From a virus, in the IMG/VR virus record IMGVR_UViG_3300025853_000044, positions 31,368 to 95,367 of that record: DNA of 64,000 nt. One strand, given 5' to 3'. The position numbers and the translations under genes were made by a program. Below, one piece after another: positions 14,236 to 56,084 of this stretch; the first letter of the stretch is position 1; each line of letters starts with the position of its first letter. The notes beneath the pieces were generated by a model that saw nothing but the letters and a program-made list of their open reading frames with translations, was not told where the DNA came from and made no database searches.

Positions 14236-14571
14236 TCAGCAGTTCCATCGCTTCAAGGATGCTCCCTTTGGTGTGAGTTTACCACCTTTACTGGTCGGGC
14301 CTTTGACACCCGACATGCGAGCGCAAAACGATTTACGACGCTTTGCCTTCTTTGAGCCGGGTTTGAGTTTGCTTGGTTTGGTTGTCACGGGAGGTTTGAG
14401 GTTTGCACCACTCTTACGCTTGGCGGCGGCACGACCTTTAGCGTTCAGTCCACCTTTCTTACTGTGCTTATTTGGGTTATAACCATGAAATGGCTTACTT
14501 TTTTTGGCCTTCATTACAGCAAAGGCTAATTCAGCAGGCGAACAACAATCACAAAAATCGTAATCCATCAC
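14236..14571 (-). CDS. small basic protein of a family common in marine phages
   Basis: The 111-residue protein is very lysine-rich. Its core GGLNAKGRAAAKRKSGANLK, followed by PPVTTKPSKLKPGSKKAKRR, SFCARMSGVKGP and a terminal ASLKRWNC, is a pattern I recall from short uncharacterised proteins of marine tailed phages and large viruses (a DUF6321-like domain; assignment from memory). It may bind DNA or another acidic partner. The N-terminus carries a cysteine cluster (DYDFCDCCS). It overlaps the giant gene by four bases. Two further small basic genes (56089-56487 and 56901-57092) share this style. Confidence 0.7.
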   Translation of the reverse strand: MMDYDFCDCCSPAELAFAVMKAKKSKPFHGYNPNKHSKKGGLNAKGRAAAKRKSGANLKPPVTTKPSKLKPGSKKAKRRKSFCARMSGVKGPTSKGGKLTPKGASLKRWNC

Positions 14572-29500: not shown

Positions 29501-32500
29501 TGCTTTCACTGAAATAGAATCCTGCGCCCGTTTTTTCTGTGTATGCCGCACTTGCACCGTCTTCAAGGAATATGCGCCCTACCTGTGGGAAACAAATAGT
29601 TCCCCATGATTTAAGGTCGGGGGAGTCGTTGTTGAGCGGTGTGACGCTCATGCTAAAGGCACCAGTGGTGGTGACTATTCGTGCCTGTGTAGCGCAACTG
29701 CGACGAGTAGAACCCGGAAGTCGCATCAGCGGGCTTGGGTCAAAGGTAGGCTTGGTGTTCACACCGCCCTGCCCCGGCCCACCAAGCGTGACCGTGACCA
29801 CGGGTGCGTTGGGTTCAATCTCCTTTACCACATGCGAGTCGGGCGAGCCACTACCAACAGCAGAGACATTCTCATTCACGAAGGAGTCAGCGATGCCCGA
29901 AGCAGTGATAACCACCGTGGTCATGTTGGTTTCGGGGCTTTCTTGCTTGGATACTCCACGCACACGACAGCGGCTCATGAGGAACATGATGCTGGCGATG
30001 TTGGGTGAATCACCTGCGCCAAGGGAACGCACCAGCGACAATTGATTTACTCGTGATTTAACAGACGGCTGAACGAAAATCTTCGCCATGATGCCCGCTT
30101 CATCAGTAATCAAAACATTGTCAATGATGTTAAACATCTCAAAGACACGACTTGAATGTGTGGTGGGGCCGAGGTCAAACACACCTGTGCCCGACTTGTC
30201 GGTGGTGGGCTGGCGTGTGCGTTTGCCTGCGCCTTCGTCGGTGATGGTGTCGCTTTGACTGGACGACATCGCTTCAATGGCAAGACGGTGGTACACGGAT
30301 TCGTGCGTGCCTCCGTTGTGGGAACGAGCGACGGCCTTTGGTGGGCCTGCTGGTTCAGCATTGACATCGTTTGGTGGTGTGTACAATGCAGGTGTACGGC
30401 TAAGGTCAAGTTCAGTGTCGCTGTCCTGCCCGCCCGTGTTGTCACCAATCAGCGTGTGTGACTCCTGCATGAGTGAACCGTAGCCACTGATGGCGTTTGA
30501 CAGGTAAATCACACCACCGGGCGAATAGAGTGTGGTGTTGGCAAGGTCGGAGGTGATGACATCCAACACCCGTGTTGTGCCAGTGAGAATGTGAGAACCT
30601 GCTGGTACGGTCTTGGTGACCATGAGCATGGGGGTGGATTGTCCCATGCTTGCTCCTGTGAGGTCTATGGCGTTGTAATGCACCTCAACATACGGGGCAA
30701 GGTCATGCGAAGTCCTCAAGGCAGGGACATGCAGAAGGGCCACACGGCTTTCGCTTTCGGGTGTAAGGTGGAAGAGGCGGTTGTTCTCGTCAATGTCGCC
30801 TGCTTCGGGCACCGGGCCTTTGAGCATAAACGGAGCATACTTGAAGCCGCTACCGCCAATGGCGATGAGTTCCTTCTTGCTGGCAGGCATACCGTTGTTG
30901 ACGATGGTAGCAACGCTGGACGAGTTCTCAATGCGAGCGATGGGTGCTTCCAGTGTTTCGCTGTAGAAGTCAAGAAGTGAGTTCATTGGGAACATCTCGT
31001 CAATGTCACGAGTGTTGGAGTCATACGCCATCTGCACGATGTCAGCGGAGCCGTCAGCCTGCTGGTCAATGATGAGTTCACTGGGCTTGGGATAGCGGCG
31101 CATGTACTCGTGGCCGATGATGTGCGAGAAAGTGTGCCGCCCACTGTGTCCTACTTGGAACAGGGTGTCAAGAGTGGCTGGCCATGTCACGGCGTAAGGG
31201 TTGTTGGTGGTGTCAGTGGCCATCTGCGAAGAGTACACCAGCCCGTGATTACTGGCATTACCTTCGTCAAGCACCATCTGTCCCGTCTTGTCAAAGATTT
31301 GAGTGCCGTAGTGCGGAGGTTGGTATGGCTTACCCGTGCCGTTGTCAATGAGCAGGTCGGCCCCGATGACCACGAAATAATTGTCCACATTGGCTGTACG
31401 GCTGTGCAAAGCACCTCGCAGACCACTTGTACCGTTGATGAAATCTACATGAATGCTGTTGAATGTCACAACACCCGTGTTTCCATTGATGCTTTCCAGT
31501 CGTACCCTTTCGGGTGGGGATTGGTTGGGCTTCTGCGTGTTGCGATTGATGGCACCGGGGTTGATGAGTAGGTTGTAAGGTGTGTGCGCTACGCTTAGGG
31601 TAGCGGCTGTGCCACTGTTAGTGTAGTAGTCCACGACCTTGTAGTTGCCCATGCTATACGGTGTGCTTGTGAATGTGGTTGTTGGTGAAGTAGCGTCGTA
31701 TGCCTTGCCGGTCAAGCGAGCGATAAGCGTCTGTGCATCAGCCGCCGTCATGGTTAGCGTTTTTGTTGTTCCATCGCTGGCCGCTGTAAATGCAGAAAAC
31801 TCGTAAGTTCCCTCTACGATGTCTATTGGCTCTTCAAATCGGAAGAGTGCCGAAGTTGTATTACCCTTGATGGCCATAGATGGTTGAAGCATATTCTCAT
31901 CAAATTCGTTTGAGAAGTGAATGGCTTCAATTGCACCACGGAACTCACCACCTTTACCACCGAGGTACACATGCTCAGTAGAGCGTGCAAGGCGTGTTTC
32001 GGGCGGAATGTCTTGTTGAGACACAATTTCACCGTTGACAGCCAAGAACACACGGTTCTTTTGAATACCAGCCACGACATGATATAGCGGTCGGTTGTTG
32101 AAGTTGAGGTTGGTGGCATCACCGTAGTTGCTCTTGTCGTAGCGATTGTACGAGTCGTGGATGCCGCCGTGTTCTTGCTGTGGGTACACGATACCGTCCC
32201 ATCGTGTACTGGCATCGTAGGCAGTAGCCAAGCGGAAATACGATGGGCCAGCGATAGATTCAACATTAACGCTGAACACAGCGGGGCCGGGAGTATCCAC
32301 GGTACCCATTTCAAGTGTAAACTGCCCCTCTCGGTGAGCAATCACACCGCCACAGTCGGGTACAACCCATGCCTCAATTACGAAGTCTCCCGCCGCCTTA
32401 TCGTTGATTGTGGCAGAATCTCCAACTCCTTGCAGTGTCTTGGTCATGACCTTAGTACCACTACTGTCCTTTACACCCGTCTTGGTGAAGCGTCCTTGAG

Positions 32501-32567
32501 GGATAATCACTGAATCGCTCACGCCATCAAAGAAGAAGGCGTGACTACTGCGACCGATTGCAACCAT
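14568..32567 (-). CDS. giant 5999-residue tail-module protein with LamG-like ends
   Basis: An uninterrupted 18 kb frame fills 28% of the window. The N-terminus (about 1-240) looks like a LamG/concanavalin-like sandwich: HAFFFDGVSDSVIIPQG, FVIEAWVVPD, HVVAGIQKNRVFLAVNGE. A second one lies near residues 5550-5780 (ALWLKADSLDLADG, SWKDSG, GKIAEIIQYNRAMS). Two copies of a 65-residue unit lie near 3512-3579 and 5031-5098 (repeats 21830-22030 and 17272-17475). A phage-type FTGC turn lies near 4205. Long stretches rich in Asn, Gly, Thr, His and Tyr between them are unrecognised. Lying just after the tape measure and the 391-residue gene, it is probably a giant tail tip, fibre or adhesin that binds the host surface. 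The ATG is supported by GAGGTGA. Confidence 0.75.
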   Translation of the reverse strand: MVAIGRSSHAFFFDGVSDSVIIPQGRFTKTGVKDSSGTKVMTKTLQGVGDSATINDKAAGDFVIEAWVVPDCGGVIAHREGQFTLEMGTVDTPGPAVFSVNVESIAGPSYFRLATAYDASTRWDGIVYPQQEHGGIHDSYNRYDKSNYGDATNLNFNNRPLYHVVAGIQKNRVFLAVNGEIVSQQDIPPETRLARSTEHVYLGGKGGEFRGAIEAIHFSNEFDENMLQPSMAIKGNTTSALFRFEEPIDIVEGTYEFSAFTAASDGTTKTLTMTAADAQTLIARLTGKAYDATSPTTTFTSTPYSMGNYKVVDYYTNSGTAATLSVAHTPYNLLINPGAINRNTQKPNQSPPERVRLESINGNTGVVTFNSIHVDFINGTSGLRGALHSRTANVDNYFVVIGADLLIDNGTGKPYQPPHYGTQIFDKTGQMVLDEGNASNHGLVYSSQMATDTTNNPYAVTWPATLDTLFQVGHSGRHTFSHIIGHEYMRRYPKPSELIIDQQADGSADIVQMAYDSNTRDIDEMFPMNSLLDFYSETLEAPIARIENSSSVATIVNNGMPASKKELIAIGGSGFKYAPFMLKGPVPEAGDIDENNRLFHLTPESESRVALLHVPALRTSHDLAPYVEVHYNAIDLTGASMGQSTPMLMVTKTVPAGSHILTGTTRVLDVITSDLANTTLYSPGGVIYLSNAISGYGSLMQESHTLIGDNTGGQDSDTELDLSRTPALYTPPNDVNAEPAGPPKAVARSHNGGTHESVYHRLAIEAMSSSQSDTITDEGAGKRTRQPTTDKSGTGVFDLGPTTHSSRVFEMFNIIDNVLITDEAGIMAKIFVQPSVKSRVNQLSLVRSLGAGDSPNIASIMFLMSRCRVRGVSKQESPETNMTTVVITASGIADSFVNENVSAVGSGSPDSHVVKEIEPNAPVVTVTLGGPGQGGVNTKPTFDPSPLMRLPGSTRRSCATQARIVTTTGAFSMSVTPLNNDSPDLKSWGTICFPQVGRIFLEDGASAAYTEKTGAGFYFSESNAVASRTFLDGAGTAYATFHEWCNATGIISQGSAGTYLTSVYIFNDGDFDNDSLTQDGSTVNDRLFQSLDDVTHDYQLGTQYASTRAMVEIPIFPQQFFDHTDLGIFPGPDNSMKVHVDATYTAHTWNPTPVGRRANDVATADKSAKSAYSYTINNQNYIESATILRIEDATASHKHTSTGTGTGGTTYTNHFHIFVSHPNMFPDATNSSDATPTIVAADDVGNLKGINRLRRVFLTSGEWAVYDNNPALDGFLSIPINATGGYFDGYSETFFQNAIVGAKIHTGGGFRNETLMPIDSDAELPSSDLEGRSPFYYDAANMKTQGGNLDYGLRQYVSAVEFKAGPLANPHAPRTISKRAKSTIMQVQEISGNATDGFQFNIILDDASLFPDVPYSRDSNNNSIAEQGDLTYIAEIGTDTPLEVYYLGKLDSIAGANSVLVTTPKNVSLTVGDFVGAEFKLVKAGNAFQSIVNPANMQNQELQTATFHPSTSAEQWTFVGATSAGASTTLNITNGNNRFAHANTIGTNIRTGDLLFLEDSSNVIKYVGEVADVKSNLTSGAHTVVTLVAANAVAVANGDDVRIGVGTVVQNDADAILNRSWVYPFAQGGLRDGDTVWMNMTINNPHAVEGLFAKSRGVMNEAFVWSGFNGGEGALANRPRDSIPLENFLIGNSCLETAQNFAQHVNKTVEMNYEAMGLDATQAPTVAYIDPYLSTDGNARVLLFDVGHDREFIAFHDLHMQVQSSADTPTIGFTRNIAYEGGTIKLDKHLISVNGGAPHYFTTQIDVANGFPSENKYVRSTQQSKFIESAYAHNVPNTASQDLVDGTPGSDTKYTLQDPSSLGNNPLLRGKGHGHFVHTGLYHEETGNTHTVGDSVLPRVQPAVASVYYANEIHKLIRKAKEGDLLLRELKLHRATQNPATHSLKDASTLFDTPDGTRVISAFLCLKGKRNTTLELASHEESRLQHLKHWTQMDFVRRMTLDLGEVGVKEGVTDIEAAAREMVRLINQGGALNGRTHARRPSQQYPGESERLDLTRIGVRQDTADPNKDPTSAHINADFAATGSTYDPAPFWYGDIAFDSHDRGSHMGYVRAHMGRVVEDINGNEGYSIVIHSTIPGASGRNFCVWLDNSKGQSSYQPQFLIGHGGRFRNFWAQPDEILSENMHPAPMPLNKDGRPFAPVSTLREFVAQEEPDEAFTSNHDITPRRNETANPKGRNISAHLGGIAHNSVNDESFETQSPSTALVKGLRMGKQATGRINFGGLVASGVPGFSPIAGKHGLGRKGDDEFDKLYNEGLPKAGTSPTAITSYSGHVNTAEITDDAVGDTPLYGFRFNDHRGQGYGVRFIYRKMDEAFANDLTTIPSTLDDEICVYFNDGDVAKGGFTIGQHMLGFGDATGRLDVTTVTMNSWRGNQWRGVYAPSAGIDCAISWDASATTLTVQLGAPFDSGQELGNHPDILGYLGFPRQNGVIQITDPMTGTTDKGTVGNVISYESRTQLNSAGDSGVHTFYGVRGSEFTASHSLTGLTATSLTNTAVSMFNASTDRIIKALISPRINWTTLMTDELMAAVTAEAINMADPNTPEGIPFDCRHMYAVDGRTFGEWGVAADAIRIRAHNPQRGARPLSTMFEASLHRDLGIEAPHLEFGEYEKLDQSSNSQWTVTAPAAFNKPVSDADIEDNHRKVDCGYLPHTVLQIRTKARGYHTNTPTPILVDSYNDPVPTKTWANNLKGLTYTSRSGDHILPALDNALVTTDFTHSDDVFTTNSGETTTHILVPAGEEAATFDSLTKLVSFGDAKVIWSGSNRFATVTSVQGANSATKLKVVAINYNEEWNTLYGASADRADVLLMLHADKDFSGYRLYGSIESEPVTYFKNGRDSNDHSVPLYFGGGFSGVVLDVNDGSQNDYSSFYTHPYSNGPTGTAGIQNANEISTAYALMDCNALLAFFPGTPYLNQHRGSINPPAYNQNNVLSADIDSGTLPNLASGQPSHVTARYTAGIVRQRPIPLIMRMPHQTARYTDHKTATPYFTTYLIYGPGQAFPFNETASNLGVVEPHPGYVVTTGNSWSKVPHSKNLPNEITNNDNDYGPPDANYQSRRNRFHWQTTLNWSPAQGTPNIGDTGASGYGLKQRPEHGYHYGEHFMNPVSGRVVANNEADYKKAHPYQHCAMAYYGIAMSADMTFHMDGGYHPGGSWMDNQMAFNPPMEKDDLQISKLFANAVQPTAYRVSGVIAKSVLAGSLGETATDFDREIIVVDGTRCQNGEELATIIGQAINENPGKGALKAMGGTFMPSMSNAQRQDRYGWIEMDYGDPSNSYQNATTGGSSQSYIEGSIAGSTRDVLEQIPACGWIRTDTGGRSHPSTAPNNSCPAFAPYHSREIYEKAGVLTVRFWLAPNKITGKAQFEDMTTWHNRCESAGITVPDFDLTAVPPNLPTKLYVWSKSGVHYHNNAYDTPRDHMTRSHFSGLVDAIDRTRPVGAMGWSGERYSYLNSLKVTTSSFTDATCDYNNATTITMDSTALLKKNMLVSGTGIPAGAFVVSITNATTFELSASTTGGAVTNGTLTFTTNLYGAGLGAWHAKLGFSPYGPASSVMSTYSHLPHYAPMRNSPEASGPISGTDNDETMLTTPYSWTYASTNTNPAYNTDKTDAEHSDYFANPVHIGDADAVPRALHHPQGVFGRAFLVISYEGELGLVAKRDRDGVTAMGDWLAVVNKTAGGVAAATAITFAGTAQWDERIHSVDRFVAPAHGGPNIEALVTNLSLPADDIPADPFLFNAPLAADIELFNAEPCYAKTGDLFFDLDESPGSFFLEDATSVERNLITDLKTSTSAELDRYGDDANYWLGDTNAFKMNQRSPAKNFSVEHVVWKRMDGGNLSLPAVNARGLGAVPFVTRVLSNTPHTMGEKLYGINRFSFETTNSAMFPIIQAQELAHPQIAAAHPDELRNVLAIPNEELQFEEMQVEDDTGQIHIIEGGSPFGTIIRTFNAVSDRSAEGFAPATAGSGVEPNLKVRLPHPDSIPGNLLIRAGFDRLQAYQNESMGTGGMMRPMSSSSIKHLFTDDTKGPRLGGTFSDHNWEHISQGSFPDPTYAGWETATGNAPLETSYELHDRTLFFHITKNGNTHSHRHPTFYTHAGGVVNAELTAVSFSGTTLTVNTAPNASLFNESIRDGRKFLRLYDPTTDKGGVASFTGISSSTFTGCVGDADFAELVKSSITTLKVVPSYYIPAGSTRFFASRRLRDHAEVSGNSPDIVHSTYITGLTLNALLCHTVYSRPKMTPMALPRMGHHFVNPTMAMLPGHFAHPAYQGLYNKHRAIRSATVKPHETLLMEEQTMSNLKTDISTTLTNNLHGYDTLHTFGALTATPSGPSDIHGGAFTLMFESKIRSDGYGVLASEGQAGVINAAGGHTIVLEAAATYTLRHHFPDPSEVGAYQIVIQPNIHKSQLMGYHANGGATALPDGSVNELTSQQVALVIGLREPDSATGAVGLVLAEATMADVRGCEVFVNELILDHDPDHGSQFTNIPPLMLYNALGVQATESPAFVKRSLPYQPQMFDNATPGMTTNIPWWSIVHKDGPDHADATGFRHLNHHRLDNYYEFLRASTGSIACQITLAGYPSIYPDIYHEVLENISLNPVCTVVSVDSTTQITVDDARGFPQKPYYGNKLEYTDVNGVRRTHTYTERSGYDSSNMNKPKQFTITAKSSFTSNLTAGTKLRLTRAYDFRPAGAIFTDSKTSMVTRILPQMLQGSRDTNSLHVADAFLCLWHPNLGRPHTFYSDSSRTWLNPLTDRAVAQKPLNSMPEHFETVHYHDAAYYASLGPFAFDRKTPAPPYEIIAHASVGTNVPSTVVSVDIPNKLITTTRRTAKLVGGTKIMIDGIAYTVQDDGGSVFDNHVLGVMPVIEPIVATIPIGSTIMAHAIGSMLTADVLDTTFGSPIIAGNFDPQGGQADASDAATKTNLNHYWPCGSRGGPLISRLDGYGYVSTSWDFPREYTFDGPVWADQDDDGSYVVTNGVVKSTYDAFTDATCDYNNDPTITMDSTAKLVVGMGVSGTGIPGSATVSSITNATTFELSASTTGGSVTNGTLTFTPVQTRTRPFGYRIGLRQPYNKPQWSLYGMRAFREAAVTGTNTSVGYPHGPLVQGETETWTYAGGSGLSNGTYPNTQLGIMERQTNFSGMLGVDKPEWQVRYSDGMRMARAFGCPVRTLRNASGVLRDWWGDGEGKGIYKLDEAVAYYLVDWWGNTRGEEVRRHPVRGFGIRPAWDAGDVYEYDRTGNKTPFDRIYNGGFPIMNTKALIDASGNISVTTGFTIPRFAGRLNNVNSNDATELVDVYFPTNAHRVGDDGHGRGLRYPTAFNEDVLTALDEPYHASGVVLSHHTAEPNMNDGYIRARNDVLQADEVPRGISARLDIAEDGLLKPEAVVSDRVETVSGDSPHKDAVSRSAPRIGLDTENVEGVDDNLIAINTEAHSLHSDRGVGQRVIVHGGMQAGSQTIGHYDLTALDFSGQPQGGAMRLSHTSNFNPLGGTYIAEARNFVSPIDDTEWGGIPTSGMALWLKADSLDLADGAAVTSWKDSGPHGFEFTQSTASKQPVYIASSSNVNNMPVVDCDGTDIMSTPFDARLNTTDVTLFVVAWSDDDDGNAQGVLETFANSPVTRAGHSLFIRWDSSDKWQWRGGADTTYTVVNSPSNAVVVNQAELVTGTIAGGDGAGSNANFELFLQGVSVGSSTGAWYVADEDPYGIGHVGSFELKGKIAEIIQYNRAMSTTERQQVEGYLAEKYGFTNNVSQWKSSNPYQTDTNGHQRTNLTDKRISYMLRPVRLLDKQHAEMFRSNLNLHSSSPQYGSNYFGATAGGKYGLYVYETTNGQASAGSYIRSTNPDTNPPYAPAYYMDISTSDTVPMSQGPKIIGTAATGFDSSLLDNEITRVVMSENTLQHYRADAARRRTHQEGESKEERMDYTVQPRFSQSLHPKGHKGDVSYNSNDHSGDAS
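17272..17475 (-). repeat. copy of shared structural domain (giant gene, C-terminal copy)
   Basis: It encodes about 68 residues beginning TDATCDYNNDPTITMDSTA and containing VSGTGIPGSATVSSITNATT and FELSASTTGG. It matches the copy at 21830-22030 closely at protein level, and more loosely the copy in the major tail gene (37824-38015). Confidence 0.85.
21830..22030 (-). repeat. copy of shared structural domain (giant gene, middle copy)
   Basis: It encodes TDATCDYNNATTITMDSTA, then VSGTGIPAGAFVVSITNATT and FELSASTTGG. The protein is nearly identical to the copy at 17272-17475, while many third codon positions differ, so the duplication is not recent or is under protein-level selection. Confidence 0.85.
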
Positions 32568-43237: not shown

Positions 43238-44338
43238 TCACTTGAGGTCACGGATTGAGCCGTGTCCACCGAAGAAAGTCGTCCATAGTTCTCCCATGGT
43301 GCGGTACATTCCTTCTTGTCCGAGGCGGTTGATAGCGAATGGGTCGCCAGTTTCAATACCGCTCTCAAAGTATTGGGTTGGAATTGCAGTGCTGAAGTAC
43401 AAGTAATCCGTGTCAAGGAAGTACATACGGCTCAAAGTGTCCGTTTGAATGTCCTTGGATGGGATGATTGGGACACCGTTGTAGGTGGCCACAATGAAAC
43501 CTGCTTCAATACCGGGAACACCTTTCACACCGTTGTAGGTAGGGGTGACACGCTTCTCTTCCATAAACCGCTGTTGGCTTTGGAGGAGTTGTTGTAGGCG
43601 CATCAAGGTGTCGTATCCAGTAAGAATAACCTTGGGGTTTCCACCACGAGTCCAAATCTTTTGGAACAGGTCATCCAACTGGTCAAGGGACAAGTTGCGG
43701 TCAGTACCACTGTTTTCATTGTGCTCAGCGAGCGACCACGAGTTTGCACTGCGGTCAATGGAGTACATGTCTTCAGTTGAACCTGCGGAAGCACCAACGG
43801 TCACACGGTCAAGGGATTCAAAGTCGTTCCCTGCAACGGTGGCTTTGTCGGTCGTAAGCATCTTGTTCACATGCTCAGCGTGGTGCTTACCCATTTCTTC
43901 CTTGAGAATTGCACGAATGTCGCCCAATCCATCGTCCTTGTCGGACAGGAACATTGCGGTTTCGCTCATGTCAAAGGTGTGAACCACAGTCTTTGGCTTG
44001 GCGGCAATGTGCTGGAAGGTTGGTTTGGTGGTGTCGGGGAGCGTAGCGTTTTCTGCAACACCGCCGCCAACCGTGAAGGAAGGACGCTCGGTGATGACTC
44101 GCCAACCACTGCGTTCCCAAGGTCGCTTGGGAAGGATGGAGAAGGCGTTGAACTCTTGGTTCAACTGGCTCCAAACCTTGCGTCCATAGATGGCTTGGTA
44201 AGTACCAGCCGTGGTGGACAGCATTGGAGCGTCAGCCTTGAGCAACTCGCTACCGGAGTAGGAGTATCCCATTGCGTTGCCTGCGCCGTAGTAGTATCGT
44301 TCCATGTCAGTAATGTTTCGGATGTAGTCTCTTGCCAT
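43238..44338 (-). CDS. major capsid protein, HK97 fold
   Basis: The 366-residue protein has the order and texture of HK97-fold capsid proteins: an N-terminal arm, IYGRKVWSQLNQEFNAFSIL, a beta hairpin with VVHTFDMSETAMFL, a spine helix (REDIRAILKEEMGKHHAEHV-like, residues about 143-162), an A-domain with NPKVILTGYDTLMRLQQLLQ, and a C-terminal PTQYFESGIETGDPF. It follows the protease-scaffold gene directly, as is typical. GAGGTGA before the ATG supports the start. It should form the icosahedral shell after protease maturation. Confidence 0.9.
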   Translation of the reverse strand: MARDYIRNITDMERYYYGAGNAMGYSYSGSELLKADAPMLSTTAGTYQAIYGRKVWSQLNQEFNAFSILPKRPWERSGWRVITERPSFTVGGGVAENATLPDTTKPTFQHIAAKPKTVVHTFDMSETAMFLSDKDDGLGDIRAILKEEMGKHHAEHVNKMLTTDKATVAGNDFESLDRVTVGASAGSTEDMYSIDRSANSWSLAEHNENSGTDRNLSLDQLDDLFQKIWTRGGNPKVILTGYDTLMRLQQLLQSQQRFMEEKRVTPTYNGVKGVPGIEAGFIVATYNGVPIIPSKDIQTDTLSRMYFLDTDYLYFSTAIPTQYFESGIETGDPFAINRLGQEGMYRTMGELWTTFFGGHGSIRDLK

Positions 44339-44365: not shown

Positions 44366-45745
44366 TCATTCCCCTCGCAGGGTGCGATGTGCAAGGGCGT
44401 GAACTTCGTCCCACCCCATGTTCGCCATGTCTTGCGTTGAGGGAATGTCAATGGATGCAACCGACTTTTGAATGGTCGTGCCTGCTCCTGCACCGATGTT
44501 GTCAATGCGCTCGGAAAGAGCCTCAATGGACTTCACGATTTCCGTAAGTGGTGCTCGTGCGTCAAAGGCGGCTTTATCAGCCTCGGATTTAGCAACTTCC
44601 ATCTCGTTGTTGAAGCGAGCGGCAAAGTTGCCTTCAAGGTTGTTTCGGAAGTCTTGTTCCAAAGCGGCGGCTTTGTAAACTTCGTAAGCGGCTTCAAGGT
44701 CTGCATCACTCACATTTTCGGAGTTGAGGTAGCCCTTGGACAATGAGGCTGGCCCCATTGCTCCGGCAGGAGTTTTACCACCGGAAGCGGTGATAGCGTT
44801 GATTGCACCAGTGGAGGGAGAACCGTTCTCCTGTCCTCGGCCACGGACTTGACCACCGAAGTAGTCAGCACCGTCAACAGCGTCGGGGTTGTCAAAGCCA
44901 CCAAGTTGGGCTTTCTCAAGTTGGTCAAAGTGGAGGCGAGCACCATCAGTGTCAACGCCAGCCGACTTGAGGGTGTTTTCCATCCAAGAAAGGTATTCGG
45001 AGGAAATAACATCGGAGTATTCTCCTTTGTCCATGTACATCTTGTCATCGTCTTTCTTTTCGTCTTTCATTTCGTCACCTTCTTCTTTTTCGGGCTTTTT
45101 TTCTTCATCACTACCCTTACCCTTCATGTGTTCACGGAGTTGAGGAGGTAGTTCTCCCTTTTCCATGGCATCCAGTCGGCTTTCAAGTCGTGACATAATT
45201 TCTGTCAAATCACTGTTTTCGTTTGTCATAGTGTTGTCCTCCTTCAAAATGCGGAACTGTGCTTCGGGGTTGATACCCTTTTCACAAATCGTCACCTCAT
45301 GCAACTCCATTTTTGAAATCTCTTGGTAGTCGCCTTTTTCCATGTCGGACTTTCGCACTCGCTTGAATGCTTGCCCTCCAATAGAAAATCCACGAAGGTT
45401 GCCCTTGCGGATTTCAGCGGCTACTTCACGAGCCTTCTCTATATCGTTGCGGAGTTTAACAACAACGAACAGCCCTGTGTCATCCGTTTCGGATTTCCAC
45501 ATGCGTCCGTTGGAATCAATGTACGAGTCAATGACTTCGCCAACTTGAATGTTGGAGTGAGCCAACTGTACATTGCGGTACTTTTCACCCTTCATGAAGC
45601 CATCAAAGGCATCCTTTAGGGCGGAGCGAGTAATGAGGTCGCCTTGCTTATCTACAAGTTCAACTGATGCGTAGCCAGCAACAACCAAATCGTTACCACT
45701 CTTGAGGAGAGTGATACCGTCAGTAGGTCGTTGAATGCTCAGCAT
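44366..45745 (-). CDS. prohead protease fused to scaffold
   Basis: Residues 1-170 are an HK97 gp4-like serine protease: VVAGYASVELVDKQGDLI, catalytic histidine in VQLAHSNI, catalytic serine in RGFSIGG, and LHEVTICEKGINPEA. The remaining 290 residues look like a scaffold: a charged coiled-coil segment (EEKKPEKEEGDEMKDEKK), helical repeats and a C-terminal tail, MANMGWDEVHALAHRTLRGE. The protease-scaffold fusion is a known arrangement; scaffold is digested as the capsid matures. The C-terminal motif recurs in the 113-residue gene at 52242-52583. The start has a poor ribosome-binding site and a TATA-like box upstream. Confidence 0.88.
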   Translation of the reverse strand: MLSIQRPTDGITLLKSGNDLVVAGYASVELVDKQGDLITRSALKDAFDGFMKGEKYRNVQLAHSNIQVGEVIDSYIDSNGRMWKSETDDTGLFVVVKLRNDIEKAREVAAEIRKGNLRGFSIGGQAFKRVRKSDMEKGDYQEISKMELHEVTICEKGINPEAQFRILKEDNTMTNENSDLTEIMSRLESRLDAMEKGELPPQLREHMKGKGSDEEKKPEKEEGDEMKDEKKDDDKMYMDKGEYSDVISSEYLSWMENTLKSAGVDTDGARLHFDQLEKAQLGGFDNPDAVDGADYFGGQVRGRGQENGSPSTGAINAITASGGKTPAGAMGPASLSKGYLNSENVSDADLEAAYEVYKAAALEQDFRNNLEGNFAARFNNEMEVAKSEADKAAFDARAPLTEIVKSIEALSERIDNIGAGAGTTIQKSVASIDIPSTQDMANMGWDEVHALAHRTLRGE

Positions 45746-45784: not shown

Positions 45785-48700
45785 TCAAGTCCGAGACACC
45801 AACGGCTGGTCATTGTCGTAGTCTATAGAGAGTCTTTCACCCTCGTCAGTTTCTACTTGAATGTGATTCAGTCGCTCGGTTTTCTTCTCTTTCTTTTCAT
45901 CAGTAATTTTTTTCTCACCGTCAAAATCCGGTAAGGTTGACTCGTGACGAAGTTGGGTTGGGCCACGGGGCGATTCCTGCGGTGTACCAACATCAATACC
46001 CAGTCCCTTTGGCCCAGTCCATGTCATGCGCTCTTTGCTGATTTTATCCAAGGCTCGTACAATAACTTCCAATGCTTTCTTTGTTTGATTGGGTTTGAGA
46101 AGGCGATTTTCATCATCTTCTTCAAGAATACCCACGCTTTGCTCTTCAGTTCGTTTATCGCTCGGCTTCTTCGGCATTACATCACTTTCAGTTTGTTTAC
46201 TGAGTAATCCTTTTACCATTAGTGGAGCAACCGACGACCAAAACGGCATAAGACTTTCAGCCAGCACCACAGGGTAATCGGTCTTGGTCAAATCACCCAT
46301 CGTGCTTTTTGGTGAATGCACACACCACACATCGCCTATTTCTTCCATGTTGTACACTACTGTGTCAACTCCCTTCAACACGATTTGAATCTGTGAGTCC
46401 GAGATTTCAATATCGTGAGGAATAAGAATTGGTGCGAATGCTTTGGTCATGAGGTCAAGAGATTCTGTGCTGGCCGCACCCTCTCCTTCACCCTCCCCTT
46501 CCAACTCCTTGACTTGTACATTGTACACAGGGCGGTTTTTGCGGTTTTTCTTGGAAATACCCGTGATGGATGCACGAACAATGTCGCCAACCTTGAACAC
46601 CATACGCTGGTTATGAGCCGTACCCACATCCATGTAATGTTCACCATCATGCTCCACAGCCCTGTTTCCAAGCCCCTCAATCTCAAGGATAGGGCCAGCA
46701 CCCAACTGATAGGTGTACGGGCCTTTGCCACGACGGTCAAGGATGATGAAGTTGAAGTCTCGGCTGTCACGGTAAACAATCCACTTTGGATGTCGTCGCT
46801 CTCCACGCATGTAGGTGGATTTGTTGTCTCGCAACAAAATGTTGTCGTGGTCGTCTTTGAGGTTCTTTACAGCGTCGGCCAGTCCCTCATCGTCTGTCAT
46901 ACGAGTATCGTGTGGGCCGGGTACAATCACAGGCTCTTGACTGTCAAACTGTGAGCGTAGAATTTTCAACCGCTCAAACAACTGCATTTCACCCACATTG
47001 GTATCGTCGTAATTGATAATGTCAATGATGTTCAACTCTTCTTCACCAAGAATAGCGTCCAGCGTATAGTTCTTGTCGTTCATTTTTTCAAGAGCCTCTT
47101 TCGTGGCTTTGCGTAGCCCCTTCTTACGACCGTTTTCATCATACGCCGTAATCTCGTCATCACTGCGTACAATGATAATTCGCTTCCCATCATACCACTT
47201 ACTTACAACCCACGAGCCGCTGAAACCACGAAGGTGTTCAAGGTCGGCCAAATCAAAAATGCGGTGCATAGGGCGAACAGCAGGACTCCATTTCGCATCG
47301 TCGCTCTTGCTCAACAACACATCCGGGTCAAGTAGAGAGGTGATGAGTTCGGTCATCTCACTTGCCGCTACCGTAGTTGGAATCTCGCTTGCTGTTTCTG
47401 CTGTCTCCATGTTCATGCTTTGGTGAGGATTGTCGGGGTACTGAGGTGGTGGTGCATTTGCATAGACTTGTTGCGCTACTTCTTTTCCGTGAATCATAGC
47501 GGTCAAATCCTCCGGCACAGAATGATACAACCCTGTGCCTACATTTGAACCGATGTGAATTGTACCGTCGTCGCCAAACTCAGCACCAAGTGTAGGTGTT
47601 GCTTCATACCCATGGTGCCACGCACCGCTGTCAAAGTTATCCGTCAACCCTGCGTGTGCGGGCGAAGGAATACCCAGTGGATACTGAGACATGCCTGCTG
47701 TTTCAGGAATTTCCAAGTCGGGTGTGAAGACACCTTCCTCTTCTTCAAGTACACGAGGGTCAAAGTGAATAATCGTGTCAAGGTGATTCTTGGTGTCGTT
47801 TGTTTTACGGGATTTTGATTGACTACCAAAGCCCTTTGCACCGTGAATATCACCTTTGACGGCACCAATACCAGCGGCTTTCATTGAGTCTTTGAATTGC
47901 TGTGGGTTAAGTTTCATACCCATGGCTCGTGGAATACCGTGAGAAAGATGTCCACCCCATGCTTTTATGTCAGTTTGTTGTGCAAAGTGGTTAATGGCTT
48001 GATGATACCCGTTTTCTCGTGCGTGGCGATAGAACGCCTCATGGTCGTCCAACTCCTCTTCGGGCTTGTTCATCATCTCTTCGTCGGTGAAATGATTGAG
48101 GTCAAGCCCGTCAATGTTCGGGATTTTACCACTGAGAAGAATGTTCTTAATTGTAGAAACTTGTAACGGCGCACCTCTTTCACCCACCATATCAATGAGT
48201 TCTTGGGCTTTCACTTTTGCAACAGGAGTTCGTTGGATTCCAAGTTTGTCCAACAGTTTGTCAGCATTTTCATCACCCTCAACCATTATACCGTCTGTGG
48301 ACAAATGATTAGCGATAGTAGCGTGGAATGGATTTTGTGCCGCAGGGTCGGTGTCTCGTACAGAAGCCTGTAATCCATAATTGGTTGAAGAAACACCGTG
48401 TACACTGTGAGGAACAGACACAATGTAGCGTTGAGCGTCACGCATCAGTTGATGGGTGTTTGCGATAAACTTCTCCGGCTCGTCGGGATTGAAAGCATCG
48501 GGGTCATGCTCAAGGTATTTTGGTAGAAGAACATCTCGTGCAACCTCAGCAATGGTTTGTCGGTGGCCACCAAACAATTGCTCCATACGAGTGGCATCAA
48601 GTTTCCACATTGTGTTTTTACTCTTCTTTTGTGTGCTTTGCTGTACCTTTTCCAATTGTTGAGTCGTATCGTTGATTTCAGCCATCAACGGTTGCAATTC

Positions 48701-51571
48701 TTCAATGGGTGCGCCAGTGGTTTGCTTTTCAGTCAACTCTTGATTTAATTCTTCAAGCATTGTTGTGAGTTCGGATTCTTGTTGCGAAGCGGGTAACATA
48801 CCGCCGAATTGAAGCAAACGAGAAACGGCATCCTTTTCGTCAGCCGCCATTGTGGTTTTTGTTTTCTGTGTCTTTTTCTTCGCTTGCAGTTCCTCAGTCA
48901 TGGTTTCCGTCATGCTTTGAAGAGAAGAAAGCAACTTCTGTTCATCAAACTCACCAAGACCTCGGCCCAACAAAGCAGTGTTTAATTCGGGATGCTTATC
49001 TGTAACGACACCGGGTGCCATCGGGAGAGTGTTTCTACCGTGCATAAGGTACTCAAGAATCTCCTTTGGGTCTTGTGTACCCAGTATTTTTGACGCTTGA
49101 GTAATGGCCGTCATAGCGTGATTCATATCGGGATTGGTCAACACTTGATTCTTCAACGCATTGAACGAAAAGCCACTACCACCGCCCCATCGCATAAAAT
49201 CAATGAAGTGTTCTTTGCTCTCCCCACCACTGAATGCCTCATCTCCACGAAGGAAGTCTTGAACTTTCATCAGTGATTTTTGTGCTGGTTGATGAGGGTG
49301 ATTCATACGCCCGCCAAGCGTTTCAAGGAAGTGAGCCAGTTGTGCGTTCTTGTGCATATTGCTGTCCGAAGGAGATGCGCCGTAGGATGTGAAGGCACCC
49401 ACATGATAGGTGGGAATAATTGTGTGTGGATATGTCAACGGTTTGAGATGGGTGCCAAACCTGTCCTTACGCTCTTTGTCCGTCATGTGGCGAATCGTGT
49501 ATTCGTAATCGGGGTTGAGTGTCGTTTTGTGTTCTGTGTAGTTGTTCTTGCCGGTTGAACCGTCCCGGTACGCTCGTTTTTTGGAATGCCCTACGGGAGA
49601 AAGCAAGTTTTGTAGCAACTCTTTTTGGTTGAAGTATGAAAAGCCCTTACCAGTAGAAACAAATTGCTGTGTGCTTGTGTTTACCTTTTTCATTTTTTCG
49701 CCAAACTCACCAATCAACTTTGTTTTTAATGGCATGAAGTGATGAGCGAGCGTTGTGTTATCGGGATTGGCATTGATGTAATTTGCACCAGCATCGCTTA
49801 GTTCTGTGAATGGCGAAAGACCGTCCTCATCAGCATGTGTGGCGTGAAGGATGTCATGGTAAGTTGCAAGCGTTATACCTGCTCCGCCCGTTTTTGCAAA
49901 GGCTGAGTCCCAAAAGCGACCGGGGCCGTAAGTGAAACCGTCACTGTGGTTTCGCCAGTAATTCGGTTTTTCCTCTGTTGGATGAGGGCCGTGTGGGGAA
50001 GTAAAAAAGGCCCGATGATTGCGAGCATCCTTGATACCAGCATGAAGTGAAGAGTTCGCCTTAGCCATGGATTCAATGTCGTCAATCAAGTCAGCGTTGA
50101 CAATTGGTTCTTCCAATTTACCGTGAATTGGATGGTCGGTCATCAACTCCCGTGTCTTAGGGTCGTAGCCAGCCAAATAAAGCAAATCAGCCTTGCTCAT
50201 TCGCACATCGTCAAGACTTCGCTTTCTTCCCTTTACTTTGAAGTGGCTTGCCATTGCATCTTTCATTTCGTCTTGGTCAAGTTCTCTCATTGGGTTCTTG
50301 TCCACATAAAGGCGTGGTAGAAACTTGTGATGCCCCGATATACCGTAGTTGTCTCGGATGCGTTCAAGAATAATTTCTGAGAGTGAATGACCATCAAATT
50401 CATCCATAGGCTCGTGAGCAAATCTACCCATAGCCTGTTGCAAAAACATGTTGCTTTCACCAGCAATGTAGTCGTTGTCATTGTTTTCTTGATGGTAGTG
50501 TGCATTTCGCCCCATATGTGTCATTGGACGCATAGCCCAATTCATTTCGGGAGTCATACGCATGAGGGCGTTGTATTTGAGGCGAGCAGAAGGAAACTTT
50601 TGTCCGTTAGGTAGCGAAATCAAATCATGGTCGTCAAGACCCTTTTCACCGATATGCTCCATGATGGCTGTGCGTTCTTCGGGGTCAAACCATTCAAGGC
50701 CAAGCATGTAGCCAAGGTGCCCAAGCCGTGTTGGGTGTTCTTCATACTTGTCGCTGAGCATCATGTTGCTATCGTCATCAGCCTCCCACATGGCCGCTCG
50801 GTCAGCAAAGTGTTCTTTGCGAAGTTGCTCTTTCATCTCAGCGTTGTCCATACCTTCAGCCAGTAATTCCTCTTGACGATTCTTGTTCCGCTTTAACCAA
50901 CGGAAATAATCTCGCTCGTAGAGGTCATGCTGGTGATGAAGAAGTGTGCCGTTTGGACGGGTATCACCAAGAATGTTTACCTTCTTTCCTCCTTTTTGCT
51001 GAAACCCACCGACAAGAGGATGGTCTTTACCGAGAGTATCAAAGAATTGCTTTTCCATTTCCTTCTCGGCTTCACCATGCCCACCCAGTGCCCAACTTCG
51101 TAGCATCTCTACATAGGCAGGCATCCCCGACACTGCGTTGGTACGAAGAAGCGGGTGGTTGACTTCGTGAAACGGGAAGTGGTGCCGCTGGTATGGATGT
51201 GTGCCGTCCTTTGGTTGGTAGTACGGCCACATTGCATGGCCGTGCTTTTTGTTTACAGGTGATTGAAGCCCGTCTTTCCATACATGGTTGGTCGGCTCGC
51301 CATGTGAGTGTTGAAGAGCGAACAAGTAGCCCATACCTTCGGGATATTTGTAATCGGTTTCACCGACTTTTACTGCATCTTTTTCTGCTTGTTCTTTATT
51401 CTTGTAAATCATCTCAGCCGTGGCTTTGAGAGATTTGAACAACGGTTCGCTTGGAGTCGTGTCAAGTGCTTCGTAGGCAAGAATGTATTCAGCCGCCGAA
51501 TAAACAAGGTCAAGACCATCATCCAGTGATTTAAGCAGTTGGTTGCTACACACAAAGAAATGGTCGTTCAC
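45785..51571 (-). CDS. 1928-residue head-module protein with degenerate DNA ligase-like domain
   Basis: A very large protein between portal and protease genes. Residues 1-1400 are rich in His, Met, Asp and Glu, with no family I recognise; a coiled coil lies near 900-990 (MTETMTEELQAKKKTQKTKT, LTTMLEELNQELTEKQ). Residues about 1430-1740 follow the layout of ATP-dependent DNA ligases: WVVSKWYDGKRIIIV (motif I region), TLDAILG (III), IIDIINYD (IIIa), DNILLRDNKSTYMRG (IV), PKWIVYRD (V), then an OB-like VGDIVRASITGISK. The expected nucleophilic lysine of KxDG is tryptophan (1459), and motif III and IV acidic residues are also replaced, so it is probably not an active ligase. The GTG start has GGTGAT just upstream. 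Confidence 0.6.
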   Translation of the reverse strand: MNDHFFVCSNQLLKSLDDGLDLVYSAAEYILAYEALDTTPSEPLFKSLKATAEMIYKNKEQAEKDAVKVGETDYKYPEGMGYLFALQHSHGEPTNHVWKDGLQSPVNKKHGHAMWPYYQPKDGTHPYQRHHFPFHEVNHPLLRTNAVSGMPAYVEMLRSWALGGHGEAEKEMEKQFFDTLGKDHPLVGGFQQKGGKKVNILGDTRPNGTLLHHQHDLYERDYFRWLKRNKNRQEELLAEGMDNAEMKEQLRKEHFADRAAMWEADDDSNMMLSDKYEEHPTRLGHLGYMLGLEWFDPEERTAIMEHIGEKGLDDHDLISLPNGQKFPSARLKYNALMRMTPEMNWAMRPMTHMGRNAHYHQENNDNDYIAGESNMFLQQAMGRFAHEPMDEFDGHSLSEIILERIRDNYGISGHHKFLPRLYVDKNPMRELDQDEMKDAMASHFKVKGRKRSLDDVRMSKADLLYLAGYDPKTRELMTDHPIHGKLEEPIVNADLIDDIESMAKANSSLHAGIKDARNHRAFFTSPHGPHPTEEKPNYWRNHSDGFTYGPGRFWDSAFAKTGGAGITLATYHDILHATHADEDGLSPFTELSDAGANYINANPDNTTLAHHFMPLKTKLIGEFGEKMKKVNTSTQQFVSTGKGFSYFNQKELLQNLLSPVGHSKKRAYRDGSTGKNNYTEHKTTLNPDYEYTIRHMTDKERKDRFGTHLKPLTYPHTIIPTYHVGAFTSYGASPSDSNMHKNAQLAHFLETLGGRMNHPHQPAQKSLMKVQDFLRGDEAFSGGESKEHFIDFMRWGGGSGFSFNALKNQVLTNPDMNHAMTAITQASKILGTQDPKEILEYLMHGRNTLPMAPGVVTDKHPELNTALLGRGLGEFDEQKLLSSLQSMTETMTEELQAKKKTQKTKTTMAADEKDAVSRLLQFGGMLPASQQESELTTMLEELNQELTEKQTTGAPIEELQPLMAEINDTTQQLEKVQQSTQKKSKNTMWKLDATRMEQLFGGHRQTIAEVARDVLLPKYLEHDPDAFNPDEPEKFIANTHQLMRDAQRYIVSVPHSVHGVSSTNYGLQASVRDTDPAAQNPFHATIANHLSTDGIMVEGDENADKLLDKLGIQRTPVAKVKAQELIDMVGERGAPLQVSTIKNILLSGKIPNIDGLDLNHFTDEEMMNKPEEELDDHEAFYRHARENGYHQAINHFAQQTDIKAWGGHLSHGIPRAMGMKLNPQQFKDSMKAAGIGAVKGDIHGAKGFGSQSKSRKTNDTKNHLDTIIHFDPRVLEEEEGVFTPDLEIPETAGMSQYPLGIPSPAHAGLTDNFDSGAWHHGYEATPTLGAEFGDDGTIHIGSNVGTGLYHSVPEDLTAMIHGKEVAQQVYANAPPPQYPDNPHQSMNMETAETASEIPTTVAASEMTELITSLLDPDVLLSKSDDAKWSPAVRPMHRIFDLADLEHLRGFSGSWVVSKWYDGKRIIIVRSDDEITAYDENGRKKGLRKATKEALEKMNDKNYTLDAILGEEELNIIDIINYDDTNVGEMQLFERLKILRSQFDSQEPVIVPGPHDTRMTDDEGLADAVKNLKDDHDNILLRDNKSTYMRGERRHPKWIVYRDSRDFNFIILDRRGKGPYTYQLGAGPILEIEGLGNRAVEHDGEHYMDVGTAHNQRMVFKVGDIVRASITGISKKNRKNRPVYNVQVKELEGEGEGEGAASTESLDLMTKAFAPILIPHDIEISDSQIQIVLKGVDTVVYNMEEIGDVWCVHSPKSTMGDLTKTDYPVVLAESLMPFWSSVAPLMVKGLLSKQTESDVMPKKPSDKRTEEQSVGILEEDDENRLLKPNQTKKALEVIVRALDKISKERMTWTGPKGLGIDVGTPQESPRGPTQLRHESTLPDFDGEKKITDEKKEKKTERLNHIQVETDEGERLSIDYDNDQPLVSRT

Positions 51572-52989: not shown

Positions 52990-54771
52990 TTACTGTCCAC
53001 GGGGGCGACGAGCATCCAAAAGTGCATTACTCAAGTTTTGTTGCATAGATGGTGCTGGCCCTCTTTGTTGTACATTCGTAAATGGTGCACCGCTACCCAT
53101 ACTTCCTCGTCGTTGAGGAGTCGCTGGCCCACGGTTTCGTAATCCCACGCCTTGACCTCCGGGTTGTGGAGGTGGCATCACCTGTTGAGCGAGTTGTGGA
53201 GGCATTTGTGGGCCTCTTCCTTGCATCATAGGCATACCCGGAGGCATACCCGGAGGCATACCGGGAGGCATACCGGGAGGCATACCGGGAGGCATACCTC
53301 CTCCCATTGGTGGAGCACCACCCGGCGGAGCACCTTGTTGTGGTGGTTGAGGTTCGGGACGCTTGTAAGTGAAACGGATGTCTCGGTTGGCTGTGTCTTC
53401 AATGAGTTCGGGCATAAAGCCAAGTTGCGCCATGCGTTGTGCGACATTGAGTTCTTCCGAATCACGGCGTAGGCGTGTAATCTCATCTTCTTCTTCGTTG
53501 GGATAGAGCGTAAGTTTCCAATCATTGATGTCCATTTGTTTGAGAAGACGAGGGAACAGAACTTCTGTGTACACTTTTTGTCCAAACTCAACGGCTCGGT
53601 TTGTCACGAGAATCTGCATACCTTCATTGTTAAGACCGCCTTTTTTACCAGCATCCATCATGAAAACCGACGAAACACCGTAGAAAGCGGCAATGCGATT
53701 ACGAATTTCATCACGCACTGCAATGTATTGCATTTCTTCCAGTGTGTCCATGAACTTAACCCAATTAACGCCACCACGACCTGTAGATGATTCAATGCCA
53801 ACCTTGGGCACATAGTGAGGGTCACGCTCCATTTTTTCGTCCACAGCCTTCCAAAATGACTTCATGGACTCCAAGTTATCTGTGGTGACTGATACGATAC
53901 CCTTTGGCATCCGTCGCTTTTGATATGCTGTGTAAATGTAATTGTCCATAGCCGTGAGTGTCATGGCTTGTCGCCACATGGTGTTGACAGGAGAGCGACC
54001 ATACAGTTTAGACGCTTTGTACTTACTCACATGAAGAATTTCGCCTTCAACGAAGTATTGGGTTTTTCCGCTACCTGCCATGTTTACATAATGCACATCG
54101 TGGAGGTCAGCACCGCACACTTCACATGTATCATCCTCAGCGTGTGTTTTGATTTGGTCACGATGAATTAAACATGTTTTGTAGCGTCCACCACGCACAC
54201 CTCGCTTATCAGCAACGATACGCATGAAAATAGGGTCGCCACGCATGATTTCTTTAACACGGTAAAAAGCCACTTCTTTGCTCTTAGGGTCAATAAAATA
54301 CTCCTTGACTAAAATCAAGAAAGCATCATCTACGATGTTGAGGTCAGCCTCTATTTCATTGAGTACAGTAATGAACGATTGCTCCATGCTGTTCTCTTGT
54401 TTAAGGAGCCACTTGGCGTAAGTCAATTCATCTATATCGGGTTTTCTTACAGCCCCGCCGCACTCAGCACATGTTTCCACTTCACTTTGATACTCCTCAT
54501 CACACACCGTACATTTGCGTGCAAATTTCTTCTCCCAGTAGTAGCCACGACGAAACATCTCTTGGCGCAACTTGGCAAGCACTGTACGAAGAATCAGCGA
54601 CTCGTTGCTTACAGCATACAACGCAGGGATGGTGATACCCTGCGCCATCACAGGCTCTTGAATACCACTTGTCCACAGCGGCATGGTTGGAGTGGGAGAT
54701 TCTTTGCGACGGAAAGGCGTACCCAACGCTGAAAGAAATCGTGAAATTCTACCTTGTTCTTCAGCCATCAC
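52990..54771 (-). CDS. portal protein with zinc-type insertions
   Basis: The 593-residue protein lies between terminase and capsid genes and has portal hallmarks: EILHVSKYKASKLYGRSPVN, MDNYIYTAYQKRRMPKGIVS, AVRDEIRNRIAAFYGVSSVF, and RAVEFGQKVYTEVLFPRLLK. Two cysteine modules are inserted: CTVC...CAEC near residues 87-104, and a C/H/C cluster (CLIHRDQ, CEVCG) near 195-215. The C-terminal 150 residues are proline/glutamine/glycine-rich with five or six MPPG repeats. The portal forms the dodecameric DNA channel and docks the terminase. Zinc modules of this type are unusual in bacterial phage portals. Confidence 0.85.
   Translation of the reverse strand: MMAEEQGRISRFLSALGTPFRRKESPTPTMPLWTSGIQEPVMAQGITIPALYAVSNESLILRTVLAKLRQEMFRRGYYWEKKFARKCTVCDEEYQSEVETCAECGGAVRKPDIDELTYAKWLLKQENSMEQSFITVLNEIEADLNIVDDAFLILVKEYFIDPKSKEVAFYRVKEIMRGDPIFMRIVADKRGVRGGRYKTCLIHRDQIKTHAEDDTCEVCGADLHDVHYVNMAGSGKTQYFVEGEILHVSKYKASKLYGRSPVNTMWRQAMTLTAMDNYIYTAYQKRRMPKGIVSVTTDNLESMKSFWKAVDEKMERDPHYVPKVGIESSTGRGGVNWVKFMDTLEEMQYIAVRDEIRNRIAAFYGVSSVFMMDAGKKGGLNNEGMQILVTNRAVEFGQKVYTEVLFPRLLKQMDINDWKLTLYPNEEEDEITRLRRDSEELNVAQRMAQLGFMPELIEDTANRDIRFTYKRPEPQPPQQGAPPGGAPPMGGGMPPGMPPGMPPGMPPGMPPGMPMMQGRGPQMPPQLAQQVMPPPQPGGQGVGLRNRGPATPQRRGSMGSGAPFTNVQQRGPAPSMQQNLSNALLDARRPRGQ
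53229..53291 (-). repeat. 12-base tandem repeat coding MPPG units in the portal
   Basis: About five copies of a 12-base unit (GGAGGCATACCC or close variants on the plus strand) encode Met-Pro-Pro-Gly repeats. Such arrays can change copy number by slippage. The unit is too short and lacks spacers, so it is not a CRISPR array. Confidence 0.85.
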
Positions 54772-56084
54772 AATCCCTCAGCGTATGTACCTATCGTGTC
54801 AGCATTTAAGCCCCACTTATCAAGAAGAGAAGCGGCTTTGTTTTTATGTTCTTTCCAATTGTTGTAGGTAACCAATTGATACAACTCAGTCTTTCGCATG
54901 GTGTCCTTCTCTTCAATGTAATTCAACACCGCTTTGGCTTGTAGTGATTTGAGTTTAAGGTGTGGAAGCACCCCTTTGAGTATTTCACGAATGTCATTCT
55001 TTGATGAGAAAATAAGGCGATGAACGGGCTTAATGGTATTTTTTGCCAACTTTTGGTCGGACACAAGGCGACCACAACCAATCATTTTTTGCAATTCTTC
55101 ACAATGGCTGAAACCATTGTCGCCACTGGCTACAATCGTCACACGAGGGTCGCCACGCTCGGAGATGAAAATGCTTCCATCGGCATCAACAAAACCAGCG
55201 GTGTATGCCCACATGTCTTTGATGATGAAACCATCAGTGCCTTGTTTGACAAAAGTTTGTCGTGCGCTACCTTTGTACACATCAACCTCTTCACCATACA
55301 TTTTGAGTAAAGAACTCATTTTACCGGCTGTCATGGATTTGTTAAGGGTTCCATAGCCTCTACGCACAATTTCACGACTTCCGAGAGCACCTTCCTTTTG
55401 TAAAAGGTCGGATGCGAAATGCAATGCGGCTACATCTGTCTTTTTTAACCCATCAATTTGATGCAGTGTGTTCTTCCACATCTTTTGGGCTTCTTTCTTC
55501 ATGTCGTTTGCATCAACCCAGTTTTGCTGGTCGTCAGTGTTCCAATCCAACTTGTCGTTAAGGTGTTGAAGCACTGTAATTGCTTTGAGGTATTGTTGAC
55601 ATGATTTTTGTAAACTGATACCACGGGATTCACCAAATTTACGCAATGCTTTGAGTGAGCGGTCATCAAGTCCGATATTGCGTATGACATCCTCCATACC
55701 ATCAGCCCATGAAAGAGATTTGATGGTCAAATCAACCTCCATGGCTTTTACACGGCGTATGTCTTTGATGATGCCGTCATATTCATCCCGAAACGATTTG
55801 TCGTGTCGGCGCATTTTGCGACACATGCGAATAATAGTGTTGGCATCGGTACCGTATTTACTTTCAAACCAGCCATCTCCGTTTTTTGCAAACCGTGATA
55901 CTGCGTTGTCTTCTTTGATGACTGTATTTAAAGTCTTAAGGGGTACACTTTGTGGCTGAAAATGGGGATGTTGAGCAATACTTTTCAAAACAGTATTGGA
56001 AAAATCATCTGCGACACGCAACGGTACATCGTACTCGTCACCGATAAACAGACTCCCCCACATATTGACCACTGGATTGACCAT
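54768..56084 (-). CDS. head-module protein fused to a LAGLIDADG endonuclease domain
   Basis: Residues about 285-400 carry a LAGLIDADG-type unit: WAYTAGFVDADGSIFI with the catalytic acidic residue in the DADG end, then RVTIVASGDNGFSHCEELQK, MIGCGRLVSD, HRLIFSSKNDIREILKGVLP and LQAKAVLNYIEE. This single motif fits a homodimeric homing endonuclease. The first 280 residues are helical and unrecognised (RMCRKMRRHDKSF, LKALRKFGESRGISLQKSCQ) and contain no intein splice motif that I can see. It lies between portal and terminase genes. Either a mobile nuclease has joined a virion gene or the domain is used as a DNA-binding part. Confidence 0.7.
   Translation of the reverse strand: MVNPVVNMWGSLFIGDEYDVPLRVADDFSNTVLKSIAQHPHFQPQSVPLKTLNTVIKEDNAVSRFAKNGDGWFESKYGTDANTIIRMCRKMRRHDKSFRDEYDGIIKDIRRVKAMEVDLTIKSLSWADGMEDVIRNIGLDDRSLKALRKFGESRGISLQKSCQQYLKAITVLQHLNDKLDWNTDDQQNWVDANDMKKEAQKMWKNTLHQIDGLKKTDVAALHFASDLLQKEGALGSREIVRRGYGTLNKSMTAGKMSSLLKMYGEEVDVYKGSARQTFVKQGTDGFIIKDMWAYTAGFVDADGSIFISERGDPRVTIVASGDNGFSHCEELQKMIGCGRLVSDQKLAKNTIKPVHRLIFSSKNDIREILKGVLPHLKLKSLQAKAVLNYIEEKDTMRKTELYQLVTYNNWKEHKNKAASLLDKWGLNADTIGTYAEGL

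What the first reader, a model, noticed from the sequence alone, without database searches (positions are those of the whole stretch)
46480..47260. A ligase-like domain with its catalytic residues replaced, inside a head-module protein
Residues about 1430-1740 of the 1928-residue protein follow ATP-dependent DNA ligase order from motif I to an OB-like segment. But KxDG reads WYDG, motif III DGE reads DAI, motif IV EG reads DN, and motif V lysines are V and R. All nucleotidyl-transfer residues seem lost while the frame and structure motifs persist. That suggests a ligase reused as a DNA-binding or structural part of the head, or an enzyme with shifted chemistry (a lysine lies just before the tryptophan).
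Basis: partly seen in the sequence, partly recalled or inferred. Interest (0 to 1): 0.72.

Follow-up and report, generated by a model that had tools for sequence, protein, structure and literature searches.

The report
Dead DNA-ligase domain in virus head protein
A giant protein in the capsid-building gene block of ocean archaeal viruses (magroviruses) carries a DNA-ligase domain that kept its fold but lost every catalytic residue across the whole family, and it is probably what the literature has counted as these viruses' DNA ligase.

Summary
The window lies in a 95-kb magrovirus (virus of Poseidoniales archaea). Residues ~1434-1707 of the 1928-aa protein are a complete ATP-dependent DNA-ligase core (nucleotidyltransferase plus OB domain): Pfam E=7e-6, profile-profile E=7e-9, and a good AlphaFold2 model (pLDDT 86) whose best PDB match is archaeal DNA ligase (E=2e-13).

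All motif residues for nucleotidyl transfer are gone, in this virus and in all 124 distinct relatives (22 groups). K1458 is not a shifted nucleophile: it is Lys in only 59 of 124. The domain is not decaying: it is the best-conserved part of the giant ORF (dN/dS 0.02-0.12), has its own invariant residues, and always lies between portal and prohead protease/MCP.

No other ligase was found in 57 magrovirus records, and one paper places the annotated magrovirus 'ATP-dependent DNA ligase' beside the prohead protease. The reported replisome ligase is therefore probably this pseudo-ligase, at least in this clade.

Function is inferred: a non-catalytic binding or structural module of a head protein. 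The closest precedent is snurportin-1's cap-binding domain, a dead nucleotidyltransferase fold that 22 of 46 members also match. Acidity argues against simple DNA binding.

The parts
45785..51571 (-). Giant head-module ORF, 1928 aa, carrying the pseudo-ligase near its C-terminus
   Evidence: ORF list; complete relatives have ORFs of 1847-2577 codons
47327..51571 (-). N-terminal residues 1-1415, His-rich (5.6%), fast-evolving, no known domain
   Evidence: No Pfam/PHROG/NCBIfam/PDB match; conservation 0.2-0.4 against 0.45-0.7 in the C-terminal part
46742..47272 (-). Residues ~1434-1610: nucleotidyltransferase (adenylation) domain fold, catalytically void
   Evidence: Pfam, hhalign, AF2 and Foldseek
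47186..47197 (-). Motif I position: WYDG 1459-1462; nucleophile Lys replaced by Trp, K1458 lies one residue before
   Evidence: Alignments; 0 of 124 relatives have Lys there
47051..47059 (-). Motif III position: D1505 A1506 I1507; catalytic Glu replaced by Ile
   Evidence: Column is I/V/L/M in all 124
46841..46846 (-). Motif IV position: D1576 N1577 instead of EG
   Evidence: Columns unconserved
46781..46840 (-). Family signature ILLRD..STYM(R/K)GE.RHPKW, residues 1578-1597, near-invariant
   Evidence: partly inflated: this stretch was part of the search patterns
46769..46783 (-). Motif V position: W1597-R1601 (WIVYR); both lysines lost
46451..46741 (-). Residues ~1611-1707: OB-like domain; motif VI RxDK replaced
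   Evidence: hhalign to ligase OB region, AF2 strands, Foldseek over 353 columns
46301..46420 (-). Residues ~1718-1757: small conserved beta region after the OB domain
   Evidence: AF2 strands; conserved through all groups
45785..46276 (-). C-terminal tail, residues 1766-1928, conserved at ~1801-1900, no known domain
44366..45745 (-). Prohead protease (S78), next gene downstream
   Evidence: PF04586 E=2.8e-10; in all 146 testable loci
43238..44338 (-). Major capsid protein (SU10-like, HK97 fold)
   Evidence: PF17236, phrog_24667; 116/116
52990..54771 (-). Portal protein, upstream
   Evidence: phrog_18178 E=3.6e-65; 121/121

Best explanation
It is a pseudo-ligase: the catalytic core (nucleotidyltransferase plus OB domain) of an archaeal-type ATP-dependent DNA ligase, captured near the C-terminus of a 1.85-2.6-thousand-residue head-module protein of magroviruses, in which every residue that binds or transfers the nucleotide has been replaced. 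Shown here: the fold, the loss of all motifs across the family, strong purifying selection, fixed gene order, and no other recognisable ligase in the sampled magroviruses. Inferred: the protein is a virion (head) or head-assembly component, and the old cleft, now re-lined with invariant R/H/D/E/W residues, binds a fixed partner (a peptide of another head protein, a nucleotide-like ligand or a nucleic-acid end) without chemistry, as snurportin-1 uses a dead nucleotidyltransferase fold to bind a cap. It follows that the 'ATP-dependent DNA ligase' credited to magrovirus replisomes is, in this clade, probably this domain, and that these viruses must use the host's ligase.
For: Fold. Motif loss in all 124 distinct relatives. 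Selection: dN/dS 0.02-0.12 in the domain, where N-terminal dN is about 4-11 times higher for the window against four partners; conservation steps up at ~1400. Gene order: protease 146/146, MCP 116/116, portal 121/121. Only ligase-like sequence in 57 magrovirus records; no NAD+-dependent or RNA ligase family in the longest records. Dead-fold precedent: snurportin profile matches 22 of 46 members, best 1.5e-5. Literature: annotated magrovirus ligase gene adjoins the prohead protease gene (PMC7318539).
Against: No experiment. The model's coordinates could not be inspected, so the re-lined pocket is read from alignments. Invariant charged residues could equally be a new active site. Presence in the virion rests on gene order. 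Records may be incomplete, and only contigs related to this clade were sampled for a second ligase. The type genomes ON649702 and OR863078 could not be checked (ON649702 not held).
Confidence: 0.62

Rival explanations
1. Neo-enzyme: the ligase scaffold acquired a new active site from the invariant residues (H1436, R1437, D1517, R1534, R1539, R1581, D1582, Y1587, E1591, R1593, H1594, K1596) and catalyses another reaction.
For: About a dozen invariant charged or polar residues, several on the strands that carried motifs IV and V; very low dN/dS.
Against: No match to any catalytic signature other than the lost ligase and capping-enzyme ones. Part of the invariance is inflated by the search patterns.
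Confidence: 0.17
2. Packaged effector: the giant protein is carried in the head and ejected with the genome, protecting viral DNA or acting on the host, the dead ligase domain serving as DNA-end binder, like the ~2000-aa DarB of phage P1.
For: Size and head-module location; haloviruses carry a 1210-1313-aa protein with zeta-toxin (and, in HVTV-1, ADP-ribosyltransferase) domains in the same slot; P1 Dar proteins are head-internal and co-ejected (PMC12810830); catalytically dead yeast Dnl4 still binds DNA breaks (PMC3694833).
Against: No sequence similarity to the halovirus proteins; the domain is net acidic; no virion data. Not exclusive with the best explanation.
Confidence: 0.15
3. Active ligase or adenylyltransferase using K1458 or another lysine as shifted nucleophile.
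For: K1458 precedes the nucleophile position; K1596 is K in 122 of 124.
Against: K1458 is lost in more than half the family; the motif III and IV acids, both motif V lysines and motif VI are gone too; K1596 aligns with the ligase residue just before the motif V tryptophan, not with a catalytic lysine.
Confidence: 0.04
4. Decaying relic or chance likeness with no present function.
For: All catalytic motifs are lost.
Against: dN/dS 0.02-0.12, highest conservation in the ORF, open frame in complete relatives, new near-invariant residues; fold match E=2.3e-13.
Confidence: 0.02

Closest known systems
Archaeal/eukaryotic ATP-dependent DNA ligases (PF01068; PDB 4eq5, 2cfm)
   Same: Nucleotidyltransferase plus OB fold in the same order, shared structural residues (G of KxDG, D1517, R1534, Y1587, G1590, R1593), best structural match
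   Different: All nucleotidyl-transfer residues lost, about 34 residues between motifs III and IIIa missing, fused to a 1400-residue N-terminal region, in the head gene block
Snurportin-1 m3G-cap-binding domain (PF21974)
   Same: Dead nucleotidyltransferase fold; profile matches 22 of 46 members, best E=1.5e-5 over positions 15-172 of 179
   Different: Snurportin lacks the OB domain and is eukaryotic (own knowledge); the OB domain and overall scores here favour ligase ancestry; cap binding untested
Catalytically inactive DNA ligase IV (yeast Dnl4 K466A; PMC3694833)
   Same: A ligase with a structural, non-catalytic role at DNA ends
   Different: A laboratory point mutant, not a natural family; this domain is acidic
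Phage P1 DarB and the Dar proteins (PMC12810830)
   Same: Giant (~2000 aa) protein linked to head morphogenesis
   Different: Packaging and ejection shown for P1, only guessed here; no homology tested
Halovirus HVTV-1 gp115 / HCTV-1 gp109 (zeta-toxin protein)
   Same: Large multidomain protein in the slot upstream of the protease and MCP in the closest cultured relatives
   Different: Unrelated sequence and domains

Membership tests
ATP-dependent DNA ligase (active enzyme) | Nucleotidyltransferase plus OB fold | tested here: met
   AF2 pLDDT 85.9, Foldseek E=2.3e-13, hhalign E=7.2e-9
ATP-dependent DNA ligase (active enzyme) | Motif I nucleophilic lysine (KxDG) | tested here: not met
   W1459 here; Lys in 0 of 124 relatives
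ATP-dependent DNA ligase (active enzyme) | Motif III and IV acidic residues | tested here: not met
   III: I/V/L/M in all 124; IV: unconserved
ATP-dependent DNA ligase (active enzyme) | Motif V lysines and motif VI RxDK | tested here: not met
   WIVYR; motif VI replaced
ATP-dependent DNA ligase (active enzyme) | Covalent adenylation and nick sealing | not testable with these tools
   Needs purified protein
Snurportin-1 cap-binding domain | Profile match to PF21974 above its cut-off | tested here: not met
   Best 25.5 bits against a cut-off of 27
Snurportin-1 cap-binding domain | Nucleotidyltransferase fold without the catalytic lysine | tested here: met
Snurportin-1 cap-binding domain | Binds m3G cap | not testable with these tools
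   Needs binding assay
mRNA capping guanylyltransferase | Closer to capping enzymes than to DNA ligases | tested here: not met
   3s24 E=1.4e-9 against 4eq5 E=2.3e-13; Pfam capping-enzyme model in 2 of 46 members only
Virion (head) protein | Fixed place in the head gene block | tested here: met
   Portal 121/121, protease 146/146, MCP 116/116
Virion (head) protein | Present in purified virions | not testable with these tools
   No cultured magrovirus (PMC10768690)

The most novel reading that the evidence does not exclude
A large group of abundant marine archaeal viruses has turned a DNA-ligase core into a head-resident binding module or neo-enzyme with a re-lined, invariant pocket that recognises a specific ligand (genome end, modified nucleotide or peptide of the capsid or portal) during packaging or entry: a viral counterpart of snurportin's conversion of a nucleotidyltransferase fold into a cap receptor.
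Probability: 0.2. Interest if true: 0.85.

Novelty: new variant of a known kind. Interest (0 to 1): 0.62.

Why it matters
Magroviruses are among the most abundant ocean viruses and are described (PMC10768690, PMC12999244, PMC10160649) as encoding an ATP-dependent DNA ligase, part of a nearly self-sufficient replisome. In this clade the only ligase-like sequence is a catalytically void domain of a giant head-module protein, so that claim probably needs correcting, and dependence on host ligase becomes testable. It is also a clear, family-wide case of a nucleic-acid enzyme core becoming a non-catalytic module in a capsid gene block.

Tried and rejected
1. K1458 as displaced nucleophile: rejected, not conserved. 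2. Decaying relic: rejected by dN/dS and conservation. 3. First AF2 run with 17 close homologues gave pLDDT 50 and was discarded; the second, with 46 diverse homologues, gave 85.9. 4. Homologue in cultured phages or haloviruses: none by tblastn or by profile; HVTV-1 and HCTV-1 have no PF01068 match. 5. Cellular copy: none in the species-genome collection with A2 patterns. 6. N-terminal 1400 residues: no Pfam, PHROG, NCBIfam or PDB match worth the name. 7. Snurportin in the PDB by sequence: not reached at E<=5 or 10, so that link rests on the Pfam profile alone. 8. Simple DNA-binding role: weakened by net negative charge. 9. Primary paper on magroviruses (PMC5434244), PMC11706807 and the snurportin structure paper are not held.

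Full report
What the window is. The window is positions 31368-95367 of a 95,367-bp virus record with 49.7% G+C. It has PolB, PD-(D/E)XK nuclease, ERCC4 nuclease and a thermosome-type chaperonin; the rest of the record adds a SNF2 helicase and an RFC-like AAA ATPase. It has TerL, portal, S78 protease and an SU10-like MCP whose closest cultured relatives are the haloviruses HVTV-1 and HCTV-1. This is the gene content described for magroviruses, viruses of Poseidoniales (PMC10768690, PMC12999244, PMC5332604).

Noticed in passing
14568-32567 (-): A 5999-aa ORF in the structural gene block, too long for the family scan and not characterised.
   Followed up: no
52990-54771 (-), protein residues ~83-108: The portal has a weak zinc-ribbon match (E=0.006); the HVTV-1 portal has a DUF7563 match at a similar place (E=2.4e-5), so a zinc ribbon near the portal N-terminus may be shared.
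   Followed up: no
54768-56084 (-): Between terminase and portal, a 438-aa protein with HNH-endonuclease similarity (phrog_5046, E=2e-7): probable homing endonuclease.
   Followed up: no
L123:7539-11480: Halovirus HVTV-1 gp115 joins a zeta-toxin domain and a C-terminal ADP-ribosyltransferase domain in one 1313-aa head-module protein.
   Followed up: partly
BFVD A0A516LT18 (827 aa): Best viral structural match (E=1.3e-25, 24% identity), unnamed; possibly another virus with the same pseudo-ligase module.
   Followed up: partly
45785-46276 (-), residues 1766-1928: The C-terminal tail of the giant protein is well conserved at ~1801-1900 with no assigned domain.
   Followed up: no
G000:C1:23089-24111 (L058:3089-4111), left of the window: A strong DUF932 protein (E=5.1e-54) in the early gene region.
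   Followed up: no
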